Origin: Nostoc cf. commune SO-36
GTDB lineage: Bacteria > Cyanobacteriota > Cyanobacteriia > Cyanobacteriales > Nostocaceae
Direction: 5' to 3'
Assembly (NCBI RefSeq): GCF_023734775.1
Contig: NZ_AP025732.1
Location: 3,044,501-3,108,500, forward strand
Length of the DNA: 64,000 nt
Below, one piece after another: positions 45,881-51,042 of the stretch. The position numbers were made by a program, and so were the translations under genes. Below the pieces are notes generated by a model. The model saw only the letters and a list, made by a program, of their open reading frames with translations. It made no database searches and was not told the DNA's origin. Position 1 is the stretch's first letter, and every line of letters begins with the position of its first letter.

Positions 45881-46673
45881 TACGAGCCAGTGGGCATTAC
45901 CTGTGGTTGTAAATAGCAAATCAAATCCTGAATTCCCTTTTGCAAATAGCGTGTTACCGTCATTGGACTAGTGCCAATATTTTTAGCGGCATCCTTGCGA
46001 GAAAGTTTCCTTCAAGAATACCATTTCTACTGCCATGCGGGGCTTTTCTTCCAACATATTGATTGCGCCTTGGAGTTGTTGGCGTTCTTCTTCTTGTTGC
46101 AGAAGTACATGAGAACGAGGACAAGGAAGTGCTTCACCCAAGGTTATTTGGCAATCAACATAGTTAACTGCGGTTGCATCTAAACTCAAAGGCATCCGAT
46201 TTTGAGCGGCTAACTTAGTTTTCTTGCCATTCTTGCACAGATACCCTCAGGTGGCTGGCAATTTCAGCATCCTTGGGCTGGCGACCTAAAGACATTGCCA
46301 AGTCCTTGCGGATCTTTTGCCCTTCATTGTATAATTCTTGCCAACGACGGGGGATTTTTAATAGAGTACTGCGATCGCGCAAGAAGTGCAGCATCTCACC
46401 GCGAATATATGGCACTGCAAAGGAACTAAAAGCATATCCTTGGCTAGGGTCAAAACGTTCAATAGCCCTAATCAAACCAAAATACCCAATTTGTTCTAAA
46501 TCTTCATAAGGTTCATTACATTGATGGCTGAACTTATGAGCCATCTTCCGCACTAAGCCAGTATGTAACTGTACAAGTTTATTACGAAGTTTAATAGATG
46601 GATTCTGGTGGTACAAGTGTAATAATTCTATACCATCAGTTCGTAAAGAGGACTCACTTGTTGCCATATACAT
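45880..46673 (-). CDS. SigF-like group 3 RNA polymerase sigma factor, two frameshifts
   Basis: Restored length about 262 residues. Regions 2 and 3 are clear: EDLEQIGYFGLIRAIERFDP, FSSFAVPYIRGEMLHFLRD and PKDAEIASHLRVSVQEW. The C-terminal region 4 is recovered from shifted frames as SRKDAAKNIGTSPMTVTRYL. Breaks are near 46204 and 46010, both in A runs. The layout matches the SigB/SigF/SigG type; in Synechocystis SigF controls pili and motility. The start is probably the second ATG (MATSES), six bases inside 46673. Confidence 0.87.
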
Positions 46674-47280
46674 TCCTTTGTTGTAACTCCTATTCCTGGG
46701 AAAATGGAGTTGCGTATATTTTTTTCTAAGTTGTTATTATTTTGCTTAGTCAGGGAAGAATAAGCCATCGTCGTTTCACTGAACTTATGAAGGATCGAAC
46801 TCTATAATTCAGTATTTGTACGCATGATTTTGCTAACATCTCTGTTGGAAGTTGTTTCTATTTTTTACATAACTCTTCAATGACACATAATCTTTAGCTT
46901 TTGCAACAAAAACTAGCTATTTATGCTGAACAATGCATAACTGGACTAATAGCCATCTGTCATACTGAGAGCAACGTGGATCGGCACTGAATTAATCGCA
47001 AAAGAGACTGAGCAATTTTATCTCTGAGTACGCACTGTTATTAATAAAGCTCAGAAATCCAAATTGGCGGTTGGGTTGAAAAACAAAATCCAAGCTACAA
47101 AAAACAGAATTTTACCTCATTTTTATAAGGATTTATACTTAGCTGAGTATTGAGTGAAATTTCCATTCAATTTTGAGAAAACAGGAACTTTGGAAACTTA
47201 TAAATGTAAAAACATAGAAACAAGTTATGGATATGTAAGTTTGGTGGGTGTCACACTTCTGCTAGACACAAGGGTGAACA
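46674..47280. other. 607-base intergenic region
   Basis: No supported gene or named RNA. A+T-rich around 46720-46900 and 47090-47200. It probably carries the divergent promoters of the sigma factor and the HTH remnant/Bax-inhibitor genes. Confidence 0.4.
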
Positions 47281-47520
47281 ATGAAAATCACCAAACATCG
47301 CCAGAAAATTCTTGATGCACTTCAACAATGGTTTAGCATCCATAAACAAGGGTCTAGCCTAGATAAAGTTGTGTCAATAACTCGGAATGCAACCATGTCA
47401 GAAAGCAATAGTTCAACGCTGGTTGCAAACTATGCCTTAAATCGTTGGCTGTTAATCGCAAAGATTGGTAACAATAGGAATAAGCACAACGTTTTCCTAA
47501 AAAACAGTTTTTCAATATGA
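47281..47520 (+). pseudogene. LexA-like winged-helix DNA-binding remnant
   Basis: Begins MKITKHRQKILDALQQWFSI, the N terminus of LexA-type helix-turn-helix proteins. After about 25 residues the normal continuation moves to another frame, where GMQPCQKAIVQRWLQTM is readable (the recognition helix region) and then stops. So the annotated 79-residue frame is half real, half shifted. Either an indel near 47360 or true decay. Its stop overlaps the start of the next gene by four bases. Confidence 0.6.
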
Positions 47521-48245
47521 GCAATACCAGTAATTTTCGTGAAGCTATCCGTGAGGCTAAATCTCACGCCCTTGTTGGCCCAAACGTAATCGCCAACGCC
47601 CTCCCCTACGTCGGTGGTGGATTGGTGCTAACGGCATTAGGAACCTACGGCGGTTTGGGAGTTATCCGTACTAACCCCGAAATATTCTTTCCCACCTTCA
47701 TTGGTGCGGTGATTGTAGAGTTAATTTTGTTCTTTGTTGCCCAAAATGTTGCCCAAAAAGGCAATAAGGGACTTGCGCTACCTCTGTTGGCAACCTACAG
47801 CCTCTTGTCTGGATATACTCTCAGTGGTTTGATATTTGTCGCTTTGAGATCCCAAGGTGTTGGTATTCAAGGCATTGGGTTGGCTGCCCTTGGTTGTGGT
47901 GTCACCTTTATTGCTGCCCGTCAAATTGGTTCAAATCTTTCTGAACAAGATGGGATGGCTTTGACGAAAACCATCAATCTCGGCGTTATTGCCTTGGTGG
48001 TTGTGTGCCTTGCCCAATTTGGGTTTGCCATGTTTGGTGTTTACACGCCAAATTGGTTAGAAATCGCCATTTCCGGTTTAGGAGTATTTCTGTTTGTTGG
48101 GGTTTCTGTTGTCGATTTCTACATCTTGCCCCGCACTTACAGCGATGACCAATATCTGCCTGCTGCTTTGTCGATGTACCTTACTTACATCAACTTGTTT
48201 GTCTTTATCTTGCGGTTGCTAATTGCCATCAATGGCCGCGATTAA
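47517..48245 (+). CDS. Bax inhibitor-1/YccA-like membrane protein
   Basis: 242 residues with about seven hydrophobic spans (VGGGLVLTALGTYGGLGVI, FIGAVIVELILFFVAQNV, LGVIALVVVCLAQFGFAMF and a long C-terminal pair). The conserved Asp pair of the family lies near VSVVDFYILPRTYSDD. Related proteins conduct or regulate Ca2+ or modulate FtsH-type proteases; here the role is unknown. Followed by a strong terminator. Confidence 0.88.
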   Translation: MSNTSNFREAIREAKSHALVGPNVIANALPYVGGGLVLTALGTYGGLGVIRTNPEIFFPTFIGAVIVELILFFVAQNVAQKGNKGLALPLLATYSLLSGYTLSGLIFVALRSQGVGIQGIGLAALGCGVTFIAARQIGSNLSEQDGMALTKTINLGVIALVVVCLAQFGFAMFGVYTPNWLEIAISGLGVFLFVGVSVVDFYILPRTYSDDQYLPAALSMYLTYINLFVFILRLLIAINGRD

Positions 48246-48376: not shown

Positions 48377-49531
48377 ATGCTTGAACTCTTAAATATAAAA
48401 ATTGAAGTAGAAAAATTGTCTAATATCTTGGGTAAGGCTGAGGACTGTCTTTGACCTCCAATATTTGACTGCAAGAATTCAATATTTAGATCAAGTAATT
48501 GCTCAACCGGACTTTTGGAATAATCCAACCCGTGCTTATGAACTACTTCAAGAAATTGAATACTCTATATTCTATAAGCATCAGAAATATCAGCGCTGGT
48601 GTTCGATTCTAGAAGATATCAAGGCTGCGTTGGAATTGCTGGAATTATCAGCCGATGAACAATTGTGGCAAGAGGTACAAAGCAACCTTATTCAACTCCA
48701 ACAAGAACTCGAAACAGCAGAAATACGACAATTATTTTCTGACCCCCACGACCAAAAAGGTGCATTTCTCACTATTGCTGCTGAGGTTGATAATGCAGAT
48801 GATCAATACTGGGCATATATGTTGCTACAAATGTACTGTCGTTGGGGAAAAAGCCACAATTATCCATTGGATGTAGTAGAGATTTCTGAGGGAAATGAAG
48901 CCGGAATTAAGTATGCAACCTTAGAAATTACAAAACGTTATGCATACGGCTACCTCAAATCAGAAACAGGCACACATCAACTACAGCAAATATCGCCCTT
49001 TGATGCTACTAACAGCTTGCGGACGAGTTTAGCTAGTGTAGAAGTTCTCCCAATATTGGATGAGTCTGTTGAGTGGGAGATTCCAGAGAAGCATTTAGAA
49101 ATTACTTTGCCGCGCCATCGGGGGAATGTCAACCGCCCAGAAACATGGGTGCGAGTGTTTCATATTCCTACCGGGATTAGTGTATTTTGCGATCAAGAGC
49201 GCAGTCAGATGCAAAACAAAGAGAAAGCCTTAGTTATTCTCGAAGAGTAAACTATTTGCGATGCCTACGGTTGGCTACGCCTACGCACTAGCCCAAGGTG
49301 TCCAGATTGACAAAATTCAACCCGGACAGATAAAATCCCTATCCAACAAGCTCATCCGTGAATATATCTTGTATCCTTACACTCAGGTGAAAGATTTACG
49401 CACTAATTTAGAAACATCTGCTGCGACAGAAGTATTTAGACGGTAAAATTGATTTGTTTATCAAAGCCTATCTGCAACAGCTATATCTCACTACTTCAGG
49501 GGATAAGGAAGTGCTTGATAATTTAAAGTAA
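48377..49531 (+). pseudogene. RF2 (PrfB) paralogue lacking the GGQ motif, with programmed +1 frameshift site
   Basis: The first 25 codons (MLELLNIKIEVEKL...) end at CTT-TGA-C, the RF2 frameshift signal; a +1 slip continues DLQYLTARIQYLDQV. The body aligns throughout with the true prfB that follows (ISPF for the SPF-type anticodon, RYAYGYLKSETGTH, QERSQMQNKEKAL). In place of the GGQ loop it has LPRHRGNVNRPETW, and the early GGTD motif is lost (EVDNADDQYW). The main frame stops at 49250. The tail, YPYTQVKDLRTNLET then DGKIDLFIKAYLQQ, is readable after a repeat-like GGTTGGCTACGCC stretch and one more shift. It cannot catalyse peptide release as classical RF2. Confidence 0.8.
48441..48455 (+). 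promoter_or_regulatory. Programmed +1 frameshift site in the RF2 paralogue
   Basis: AGGACTGTCTTTGAC: codon 25 is CTT, codon 26 is TGA followed by C, with an AGG Shine-Dalgarno-like triplet just upstream. It is almost the same as the site in the neighbouring prfB (AGGACTATCTTTGAC). Confidence 0.85.
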
Positions 49532-49649
49532 CTTTTGTAACCTATACAAGTTGTGCAGAAAAAATTTGCCCAACTACAGCTAAAATCAAGAAACATAAAA
49601 AGAGCAATTTTCTAATCCAAAGCGCTCTATCTATCATTCAGCAAGCATT

Positions 49650-50772
49650 ATGGATGTCCTAGAACTCAAACGCGAAATCGAAACGTTGTCTGGCCGCCTG
49701 GGTAAAACCCAGGACTATCTTTGACGTACCTGCACTAACAGCCAAAATTCAAGACCTCGAAAAAATATCTTCTCAACCAGAATTTTGGAATGAGCAAACC
49801 CAGGCGCAACAAACGCTGCAAGAACTCAACGACCTGAAAGCCCACCTTCAGCAATACGATCGCTGGCACGCCAATCTAGAAGATACTAAGGCTGTTGTTG
49901 AATTGTTGGAGTTAGAAACTGATGAGGCACTACTCCAAGAAGCAGAATCTACCATCACCAAGCTGAATCGTGACCTCGACCAGTGGGAGTTACAACAGTT
50001 ACTTTCCGGCCCATACGATGCGGAAGGTGCTGTACTGACGATTAGTGCTGGTGCTGGTGGCACAGATGCTCAAGACTGGGCATTTATGCTGATGCGGATG
50101 TACACTCGTTGGGGCGAAGCACACGGTTATAAGGTAACTTTAGCTGAAGAGTCGGAGGGTGATGAAGCTGGAATTAAATCGGCAACCCTAGAAATTACTG
50201 GTCGCTATGCTTATGGTTACTTGCGATCGGAAATGGGTACACATCGCTTAGTGCGGATTTCACCTTTTAATGCCAATGGCAAACGACAAACCAGTTTTGC
50301 AGGGGTGGAAGTGATGCCACAGATTGATAATTCTGTGCAGTTGGATATTCCAGATAAAGATTTGGAAATCACCACAACTCGTTCTGGTGGTAAAGGTGGG
50401 CAAAACGTCAACAAAGTAGAAACTGCGGTGCGGATTGTTCACCTTCCTACTGGTCTTGCCGTGCGCTGTACAGAAGAGCGATCGCAGCTGCAAAATAAAG
50501 AGAAAGCCCTAAATCGCCTCAAAGCAAAGCTGTTGGTCATCGCCAAAGAGCAACGCGCCCAAGAAATTGCCGAAATTCGTGGCGATATGGTAGAAGCCTC
50601 CTGGGGAAACCAAATCCGTAACTATGTGTTTCACCCTTACCAAATGGTGAAGGATTTACGTACAAATACAGAAACTACAGCTATTGGTGATGTGATGAAT
50701 GGCGAACTTGATACATTCATTCAAGCTTATCTGCGCCAAGAAAATAAACTAGTAGAAAACACTCCGGCATGA
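49650..50772 (+). CDS. prfB: Peptide chain release factor 2 (with programmed frameshift)
   Basis: Begins ATG at 49650 ([15 protein letters not shown]); codon 24 CTT is followed by TGA at 49722-49724. A +1 slip continues [15 protein letters not shown] to the stop at 50772, giving about 373 residues. The SPF stop-codon anticodon region ([12 protein letters not shown]) and the GGQ catalytic loop ([15 protein letters not shown]) are intact. It releases peptides at UGA and UAA; the frameshift autoregulates RF2 level. Translating from an internal ATG (49903) would miss the N-terminal domain. Tandem with the degenerate paralogue just upstream. Confidence 0.96.
49711..49725 (+). promoter_or_regulatory. 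Programmed +1 frameshift site of prfB
   Basis: AGGACTATCTTTGAC. The in-frame TGA is the 25th codon; the AGG-containing element 3 bases before the CTT codon mimics a Shine-Dalgarno sequence as in the classical RF2 site (TATCTTTGAC). Confidence 0.93.
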
Positions 50773-51042
50773 TTAAGGGCTAGCAAGAGGTACTAGGTAA
50801 TTTTTTCACTTTATGGACTTCCAGTGAGAAAACATCCCATCCTAGGGGCGCATAGATGTGCGCCCCTACCTTTGTGTACCTTGTCTTTGAGATGAGCGCG
50901 TAGGCGTAGCTAGTCGTAGATATCGCCTAGCAGCCGATATTAATGGCGGTTTTTCAGATAAATACCTAGCAATATACAGGGGATCGCAATTCTATTCCAG
51001 TCCAACTGTTACAGTTATAAAAGAGTCTGTAGACAAATAATT

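What the first reader, a model, noticed from the sequence alone, without database searches (positions are those of the whole stretch)
48377..50772. Tandem RF2 duplication: GGQ-less paralogue that kept its own programmed frameshift
Seen: two adjacent RF2-like genes. The upstream one lacks GGQ in frame (PRHRGNVNRPET replaces the GGKGGQ loop) and lacks the GGTD motif, but retains ISPF and a CTT-TGA-C frameshift site with an AGG spacer. Known: GGQ is required for peptide release; plant chloroplast PrfB3 is an RF2 relative that lost release motifs and stabilises an mRNA. Inference: the copy could have been recruited for another ribosome- or RNA-binding task, with its translation sensing RF2 level through the retained UGA, or it may be a decaying duplicate. 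The main frame stops at 49250 before the conserved tail, so decay is possible.
Basis: partly seen in the sequence, partly recalled or inferred. Interest (0 to 1): 0.85.

Follow-up and report, generated by a model that had tools for sequence, protein, structure and literature searches.

The report
Non-catalytic release-factor relative beside prfB
Next to the gene for the protein that ends translation at UGA, many filamentous cyanobacteria carry an ancient sister gene that has lost the peptide-release machinery yet is still under selection and still seems to need the ribosome to slip past a stop codon, and in one group of Nostoc it also appears to need a second stop codon, a UGA, to be read through.

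Summary
The window copy (48377-49531; my label rfX) belongs to an old family of RF2 paralogues: in a protein tree 33 rfX rows form one clade (100/100) apart from prfB. I found rfX, intact or not, in 54 of 217 genomes of the window's family, plus 4 remnants, and in 11 genomes of three other families. In 65 of these 69 genomes it lies directly upstream of prfB. GGQ is present in 1 of 65 rows, the GGT(D/E) tip and the switch-loop Trp in 0 of 65, SPF in 35 of 65. Yet dN/dS is 0.29-0.68, and omega 1 is rejected in five of five sets tested. The CTT-stop-C slip site is kept in 68 of 68 copies with an N-terminus, but its stop drifts (55 UGA, 8 UAG, 5 UAA); prfB has UGA in 67 of 67. In 16 genomes of the genus a mid-gene in-frame UGA is shared; in the 14 analysed the codons after it evolve at dN/dS 0.36 with no further stop, which implies readthrough. 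The window copy has two single-base insertions; assembly error is possible. Function is inferred, not shown.

The parts
48377..48454 (+). 0-frame leader ORF of the paralogue (rfX): ATG, 25 codons ending in CTT, then TGA followed by C
   Evidence: Sequence. A leader with an in-frame ATG is found in 60 of 68 copies, in 52 of them exactly 25 codons long.
48440..48455 (+). +1 frameshift site GAGGACTGT CTT TGA C
   Evidence: CTT-stop-C in 68 of 68 rfX copies with an N-terminus, in the same frame in all: 55 TGAC, 8 TAGC, 5 TAAC; AGG within the 9 bases before CTT in 42 of 68.
48453..49250 (+). rfX main frame (+1), 265 codons, RF2-like domains 1 and 2 and the start of domain 3, stop TAA 49248-49250
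   Evidence: dN/dS to five relatives over 263 codons is 0.23-0.45.
48951..48953 (+). TAC codon of YAYG-Y-LKSE; the homologous codon is an in-frame TGA in 16 other genomes of the genus
49110..49148 (+). segment PRHRGNVNRPETW that replaces the [13 protein letters not shown] loop
   Evidence: Alignment; GGQ in 1 of 65 rfX rows (the window copy is not among the 65) against 66 of 66 prfB rows.
49251..49531 (+). rest of the rfX homology, out of frame because of two extra bases (near 49242 and 49435); includes a repeat-like stretch about 49261-49290
   Evidence: DNA alignment to G131 and G145; repeat core also at 50898-50911, minus strand, one mismatch.
49650..49724 (+). leader ORF and frameshift site (CAGGACTAT CTT TGA C) of the true prfB
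   Evidence: Sequence; prfB site is TGAC in 67 of 67 copies.
49723..50772 (+). prfB main frame, with GGTD, SPF and GGQ; the functional RF2
   Evidence: NCBIfam TIGR00020 at 478.8 bits, cut-off 370.

Best explanation
rfX is an ancient paralogue of RF2, kept next to prfB but often lost. SHOWN by comparison: it keeps RF2 sequence and, as far as the model is reliable, the fold of domains 1, 2 and 4; it has lost the catalytic loop, the decoding tip and the switch-loop Trp in nearly all rows; it evolves under purifying selection; it is still encoded behind a CTT-stop-C slip site in every copy with an N-terminus. In one Nostoc group it also carries a shared in-frame UGA whose downstream half is still selected as protein. 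INFERRED: the product cannot terminate translation. It is made only when a ribosome lingers at a stop codon, first by slipping +1 on CUU and, in the UGA group, also by near-cognate decoding of UGA-C, probably as Trp. So it reports slow termination and acts on ribosomes or RNA as a non-hydrolysing factor when termination is limiting.
For: Clade: 33 rfX rows, 100/100 under a C20 PMSF model; independent duplication rejected in f2 and g47. Place: upstream on the same strand within 800 nt in 65 of 69 genomes. Selection: omega 0.40, 0.47, 0.68, 0.31, 0.29, 0.50 in six sets against 0.03-0.07 for prfB of the same sets; omega 1 rejected in the five sets tested, 2dlnL 190, 114, 17, 161, 178. Stops: far fewer than neutral simulation in six of six sets or segments. 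Loops: GGQ 1/65, GGT[DE] 0/65, WG[NQS]Q 0/65, SPF 35/65. Slip site: 68/68. UGA group: downstream omega 0.36, 2dlnL 102; 0 of 14 with a further stop in the 157 columns compared, 12.1 expected; eight close pairs 0.18-0.38, one of them with the TGG copy; codons +1 to +50 after the UGA have omega 0.28, and within 53 codons no in-frame start codon position is shared by 8 or more of the 14. The nested copy G146 reads TGG there. tRNA-Sec above cut-off in 0 of 11 genomes.
Against: No expression, ribosome-profiling or proteomic data were available. The slip-site stop is UAG or UAA in 13 of 68 copies, so RF2-specific sensing is not general. AGG is missing before the slip site in 26 of 68 copies. No rfX was detected in about three quarters of the family, so it is dispensable. 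Omega is roughly 6 to 15 times that of prfB. Recombination is evident: the UGA tips are not a clade in the upstream-only tree (their common ancestor spans 49 tips) nor in the downstream-only tree (31 tips), and in the full tree their group has 71% support; this can distort dN/dS. Domain 3 is poorly predicted (pLDDT under 50 at most residues 204-297). GGQ is present in G142 and in P0005, P0030 and P0032. No RNA structure near the UGA stands out (mean z -0.6). Two of the 16 UGA carriers (G135, G139) are broken elsewhere, and G111 and G152 have one more stop upstream of the UGA.
Confidence: 0.6

Rival explanations
1. A decaying duplicate of prfB: the signals are relics and the gene is on its way out, the window copy being one example.
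For: Window copy has two frame-breaking insertions. Remnants in G113, G135, G139, G162. 20 of 62 full-span copies hold an internal stop, 13 of those 20 being members of the shared-UGA set. Patchy distribution. Omega 0.68 in f2.
Against: Omega 1 rejected in five of five sets tested. Neutral simulation puts a stop in nearly every tip (means 12.1 of 14, 13.9 of 14, 16.9 of 17, 7.0 of 7, 5.0 of 5, 7.9 of 8) against 0, 2, 1, 2, 0, 1 seen (the shared UGA is left out of this count). The slip site is intact in 68 of 68. The family is old.
Confidence: 0.12
2. A chloroplast-PrfB3-like role: an RF2 relative turned into a protector of specific mRNAs, perhaps the prfB transcript it sits on.
For: Same pattern of lost release motifs on an RF2 scaffold; PrfB3 lost SPF and GGQ and binds the petB 3' UTR (PMC5897788, passages seen).
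Against: No RNA target known; SPF kept in 35 of 65 rows, unlike PrfB3; common descent with PrfB3 not tested here.
Confidence: 0.2
3. A non-hydrolysing decoy that occupies the A site at stop codons and antagonises RF1 or RF2.
For: SPF kept in 35 of 65 rows; nearest solved folds are RF2 chains, many of them ribosome-bound.
Against: The decoding tip GGT[DE] and switch-loop Trp are gone in 65 of 65 rows, so stop-codon reading is unlikely (the roles of both elements are recalled).
Confidence: 0.1
4. In the UGA group the gene is split: the C-terminal half is made by re-initiation, not readthrough.
For: Re-initiation after a stop is common in bacteria (recalled). From codon 54 on, start-like codons shared by 8 or more of 14 copies do occur.
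Against: No in-frame ATG, GTG or TTG position is shared by 8 or more of 14 copies in the first 53 codons, yet codons +1 to +50 evolve at omega 0.28. G146 has TGG in place of the TGA.
Confidence: 0.15
5. The window copy's broken frame is an assembly error.
For: A sigma-70-type gene (Pfam Sigma70_r2) about 1.6 kb upstream, 100% identical to G131's over 151 residues, is split over three frames in the window; it is open at 283 codons in five of five relatives. One of the rfX insertions lengthens a T run.
Against: 16 of 17 reading frames with a match in the compared stretch were not split by my test, though that test also failed to flag rfX itself; the other rfX insertion is not in a homopolymer.
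Confidence: 0.4

Closest known systems
Bacterial prfB with programmed +1 frameshift (CUU UGA C)
   Same: Same leader, slip site and frame layout; direct neighbour and sister gene.
   Different: prfB keeps UGA (67 of 67 here) and the release motifs. rfX lost the motifs, and its slip-site stop drifts to UAG or UAA. The mBio 2025 survey (PMC12421855, abstract and passages seen) calls the motif elements almost completely conserved; the words paralog, duplicat, Nostoc and cyanobacteri do not occur in its main text.
Chloroplast PrfB3 (Arabidopsis)
   Same: RF2 relative that lost release motifs and is kept for another job.
   Different: Nuclear plant gene, no frameshift known to me, lost SPF as well as GGQ, acts on petB mRNA (PMC5897788, passages).
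Class-I release factor genes of Mimivirus and Megavirus (R726, mg280)
   Same: Stop readthrough at UGA-C plus a frameshift at CUU UAG C or CUU UAA C in one release-factor gene (PMC3521657, passages): the same stop variants as in rfX.
   Different: Viral; the authors treat it as a working class-I release factor; readthrough comes first and both events lie in the 5' region.
Balon hibernation factor
   Same: Release-factor homologue without the GGQ that binds the A site (PMC10901736, passages).
   Different: Resembles aeRF1, not RF2.
PrfH
   Same: RF2-like protein with an altered decoding part (recalled).
   Different: Keeps GGQ (recalled). Six rfX score 22-60 bits against a cut-off of 167.

Membership tests
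Peptide chain release factor 2 (prfB) | Whole-protein score above the NCBIfam TIGR00020 cut-off (370 bits) | tested here: not met
   Six of six full-length rfX score 234-343 bits; the window's prfB scores 479.
Peptide chain release factor 2 (prfB) | PCRF and RF-1 domains | tested here: met
   Both above the Pfam gathering score in six of six rfX.
Peptide chain release factor 2 (prfB) | GGQ catalytic motif | tested here: not met
   1 of 65 rfX rows (G142); also in P0005, P0030 and P0032 among database rows.
Peptide chain release factor 2 (prfB) | SPF codon-recognition motif | tested here: inconclusive
   35 of 65 rows; the window copy, not among the 65, has it.
Peptide chain release factor 2 (prfB) | RF2 fold | tested here: inconclusive
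Programmed +1 frameshift of the prfB type | CTT, stop codon, C, with the product in the +1 frame after a short leader | tested here: met
   68 of 68 copies with an N-terminus.
Programmed +1 frameshift of the prfB type | Upstream SD-like AGG stimulator | tested here: inconclusive
   AGG within 9 bases before CTT in 42 of 68 copies.
Programmed +1 frameshift of the prfB type | Frameshifting shown by experiment | not testable with these tools
   No expression data.
Programmed stop-codon readthrough | Coding constraint continues past a conserved in-frame stop | tested here: met
   Omega 0.36 downstream, 0 of 14 further stops.
Selenoprotein gene | tRNA-Sec in the genome | tested here: not met
   0 of 11 genomes above the Rfam cut-off, 10 of the 11 belonging to the UGA group; the control rings above cut-off in 5 of 14.
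PrfB3-like mRNA stabiliser | Binding to a target mRNA | not testable with these tools
   None.

The most novel reading that the evidence does not exclude
A bacterial RF2 paralogue with two termination checkpoints in one gene: a +1 frameshift at CUU UGA C, then, about 165 codons later, programmed readthrough of UGA-C. Output would rise steeply only when UGA termination fails, making rfX a built-in alarm whose product acts on ribosomes stuck at UGA. This is close to the readthrough design that was once expected for RF2 itself and that, per the 2016 review, no sequenced RF2 gene shows early in its frame.
Probability: 0.4. Interest if true: 0.92.

Novelty: new variant of a known kind. Interest (0 to 1): 0.8.

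Why it matters
RF2 frameshifting is the textbook autoregulatory recoding event. Here a sister gene kept the recoding site and dropped the enzyme, which separates the two and gives a natural test of what the slip site is for. The UGA group offers a bacterial case of coding constraint past a shared in-frame UGA without selenocysteine. The review by Atkins and others (PMC5009743, passages of section 29 seen) says that no sequenced RF2 gene has an early in-frame UGA with the frame continuing, and names a giant-virus release-factor gene as a case with readthrough and frameshifting. The proteins sit in databases as 'PCRF domain-containing protein' or plain 'peptide chain release factor 2', so some annotations are probably misleading.

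Tried and rejected
Recent tandem duplication: rejected by the tree and AU tests. Selenocysteine at the UGA: tRNA-Sec above cut-off in 0 of 11 genomes. PrfH as donor of the G142 GGQ loop: no match above the PrfH cut-off in G142 or G126. An RNA hairpin as readthrough stimulator: not supported, mean z -0.6 for the 90 nt from the UGA in 8 sequences. Lowered synonymous diversity around the UGA (pS 0.159 against 0.294 elsewhere; no dip in the non-UGA set, 0.360 against 0.282) is suggestive only: 18 of 5000 random column sets but 16 of 323 contiguous shifts are as low. A suppressor tRNA or altered tRNA-Trp in the UGA genomes was not tested.

Limits of the numbers: the codon models assume one tree and no recombination; the null model used the kappa fitted under the alternative; the g32 set had no null test. 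The non-UGA genus set of 17 includes G146 (TGG), G142 (GGQ), G136 (a private TGA) and G147 (no N-terminus). The UGA set of 14 leaves out two carriers, G135 (truncated) and G139 (frame-split), because sets were chosen by span in one frame; in G143 the frame matches only to profile position 321. Motif counts use the string anywhere in the row; for the last motif the pattern was V[KL]D.RT for rfX but VKD.RT for prfB. Five rfX fragments or N-terminally cut copies (G000 second piece, G139 second piece, G147, G156 second piece, G162) are outside the slip-site count. In one search a regular expression missed the UAG site of L029; one search found it. Genomes with extra weak matches and only one match (G065, G073, G118, G119, G128, G153, G188) were not examined, so 54 of 217 is a lower bound. 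In the order and class searches only the best first-look candidates were scored, so counts outside the family are lower bounds too. G259's second hit is RF1-like and was not counted; G085 and G026 hold unlinked GGQ-bearing RF2-like copies and were not counted. The frame-split test did not flag rfX, whose frame breaks are known, so it under-detects. One search's window-only changes (4 synonymous, 7 non-synonymous) are too few to judge its last branch.

Literature: searches showed no paper on such a paralogue in the listings I saw; the library lacks most subscription papers. PMC13092985, PMC13245932 and PMC3711429 were seen by term search only; 'Nostoc' occurs in none of the three.

Full report
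Observation. The window holds prfB at 49650-50772, with the usual leader, CAGGACTAT CTT TGA C and a +1 main frame, and upstream of it a second RF2-like gene at 48377-49531. The upstream copy, which I call rfX, has the same layout: ATG 48377, 25 codons to CTT 48449-48451, TGA 48452-48454, then C. Its main frame from 48453 ends at TAA 49248-49250. It matches PCRF and RF-1 and NCBIfam prfB at 240 bits, under the 370 cut-off. PRHRGNVNRPETW replaces the GGQ loop (49110-49148), GGTD is gone and ISPF is kept.

The window copy in context. Eight relatives 85-91% identical over the matched stretch have open frames of 359-376 codons. Against G131 and G145 the window copy has one extra base near 49242 and one near 49435. 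Over the first 263 codons its dN/dS to five relatives is 0.23-0.45, like the 0.24-0.52 between those relatives, so it was under constraint until recently. A sigma-70-type gene about 1.6 kb upstream (Sigma70_r2), 100% identical to G131's over 151 residues, is open at 283 codons in five of five relatives but only 172 in the window, where it splits over three frames. Of 17 reading frames compared with G131, 16 were not split by this test, but it also failed to flag rfX, so it under-detects. Local assembly error therefore remains possible, and the short frame is weak evidence for decay.

Distribution. With a profile of 16 rfX rows, 49 of 217 genomes of the family hold a hit of 494-665 bits, while prfB hits score at most 472. 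Second hits in 23 further genomes were looked at: five more family genomes have rfX (G184 with two tandem copies, G186, G190, G191, and G208 with an internal stop), four have remnants (G113, G135, G139, G162), and 11 genomes of other families have a GGQ-less RF2 paralogue (eight in f2, two in f33, one in f21). A 291-genome class sample showed a second match outside the order only in G557, not followed up. Of these 69 genomes, rfX lies upstream of prfB on the same strand within 800 nt in 65 and 4.3 kb upstream in two; for the last two prfB was not in the stretch fetched.

One old family. In a tree of 58 proteins (33 rfX, 20 prfB, 5 outside RF2) under a C20 PMSF model, rfX is one clade with 100/100 support, and rfX of f2 and of g47 form clades of their own inside it. 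Forcing rfX and prfB of f2 together costs 78 log units (AU p 0.0002); the same for g47 costs 68 (p 0.0017). Long branches are a caution, but the shared place next to prfB argues the same way.

What was lost and kept. In 65 rfX rows (64 genomes, window copy not included) GGQ is present once, GGT(D/E) never, the switch-loop WG(N/Q/S)Q never, SPF 35 times and V(K/L)D.RT 59 times; in 66 prfB rows the counts are 66, 66, 65, 66, and 65 for VKD.RT (the roles of tip and switch loop are recalled). The exceptions to GGQ loss are G142 and database rows P0005, P0030 and P0032, whose loops read RGGQNANK or YGGQNANK. Six of six rfX tested stay below the prfB cut-off while keeping both Pfam domains. A model of a full-length relative (L004, G110) has mean pLDDT 73.7; domains 1, 2 and 4 are well predicted, residues 204-297 are mostly under 50. 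The nearest solved folds are RF2 chains.

Selection. Codon models give omega 0.40 (17 genus copies outside the UGA set), 0.47 (the 14 of the UGA set), 0.68 (f2), 0.31 (g7), 0.29 (g47) and 0.50 (g32), against 0.03-0.07 for prfB of the same sets. Omega 1 is rejected in the five sets tested, by 2dlnL 190, 114, 17, 161 and 178. Neutral simulation on the same trees gives far more tips with stops than seen, in 0 of 400 runs as few, in six of six comparisons. So rfX makes, or until recently made, a selected protein in most lineages sampled. f2 is the weakest case.

The frameshift. All 68 copies with an N-terminus (67 genomes) have CTT, a stop codon and C, in the same frame: 55 TGAC, 8 TAGC, 5 TAAC; prfB has TGAC in 67 of 67. 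AGG stands within 9 bases before the CTT in 42 of 68. A single-base deletion would remove the need to slip, yet none of the 68 has it, while the identity of the stop is free to change. My reading is that slow termination in general, not RF2 alone, gates rfX. The same variants, CUU UAG C and CUU UAA C, occur in release-factor genes of giant viruses (PMC3521657, passages).

The internal UGA. In 16 genomes of the genus the codon after YAYG is TGA, followed by CTA, CTG or CTC in 15 and by ATA in G111. G135 and G139 are broken elsewhere. The other 14 were analysed; G111 and G152 have one further stop upstream of the UGA, and in G143 the frame matches only to profile position 321. Downstream of the UGA omega is 0.36 (2dlnL 102), upstream 0.56 (2dlnL 31). 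No further stop occurs in the 157 downstream columns compared in 14 of 14, where simulation expects 12.1 tips with one. Eight close pairs, seven within the set and one with the TGG copy G146, give 0.18-0.38 downstream. Codons +1 to +50 have omega 0.28, and no in-frame start codon position is shared there by 8 or more copies. In the full-length tree the UGA tips group with two exceptions nested inside, G146 with TGG and G142 with CTG, at 71% support; in the upstream-only and downstream-only trees they are not one clade (their common ancestors span 49 and 31 tips), which shows recombination. In the downstream tree the non-UGA genus copies, G146 aside, sit together inside the UGA grade rather than among its tips, so the diversity downstream of the UGA does not look imported from them; that is my reading of one tree. 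tRNA-Sec is not found above cut-off in 11 genomes. Readthrough, probably with Trp at UGA, is the simplest account; it is inferred, not measured.

Function. The best reading is a non-hydrolysing RF2-derived ribosome or RNA factor whose synthesis is gated by poor termination. PrfB3 in chloroplasts (PMC5897788, passages) and Balon (PMC10901736, passages) show that release-factor relatives without GGQ can be put to other uses. Nothing here shows which task rfX has.

Novelty. Six literature searches listed no paper on this paralogue. In the 2025 prfB frameshift survey the words paralog, duplicat, Nostoc and cyanobacteri do not occur in the main text. The 2016 review states that no RF2 gene with an early in-frame UGA and a continuing frame was known. 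I rate the find a new variant of a known kind.

Noticed in passing
45883-46733 (minus strand): A sigma-70-type gene (Sigma70_r2) is split over three frames in the window; five of five relatives have it open at 283 codons. Either recent loss or assembly errors.
   Followed up: partly
49273-49286 and 50898-50911: The core GGCTACGCCTACGC occurs at both places (the second on the minus strand, one mismatch; about 0.01 expected). In rfX of several relatives this stretch adds seven residues in frame: an interspersed repeat inserted in the C-terminal part without breaking the frame.
   Followed up: partly
L128 (G184): Two rfX copies in tandem upstream of prfB, the first with CTT TAG C and the second with CTT TGA C.
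   Followed up: partly
L080 (G142), rfX: An rfX copy nested in the UGA group that has GGQ (SGRGGQNANKTETG), unlike prfB's loop; similar loops in P0005, P0030, P0032. A regained or retained release loop, origin unknown.
   Followed up: partly
L133 (G316): A GGQ-less RF2 paralogue with CTT TAA C on one contig; G316's prfB lies on another contig.
   Followed up: no
L116 (G156): Besides rfX and prfB a third, short RF2-like fragment (profile positions 252-339, 94 bits) lies in the fetched stretch.
   Followed up: no
47517-48245: A Bax1-I family membrane protein gene (Pfam PF01027) lies directly upstream of rfX.
   Followed up: no
G557 (class sample): G557 (family f57), outside the window's order, has two matches to the rfX profile; the second was not examined.
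   Followed up: no
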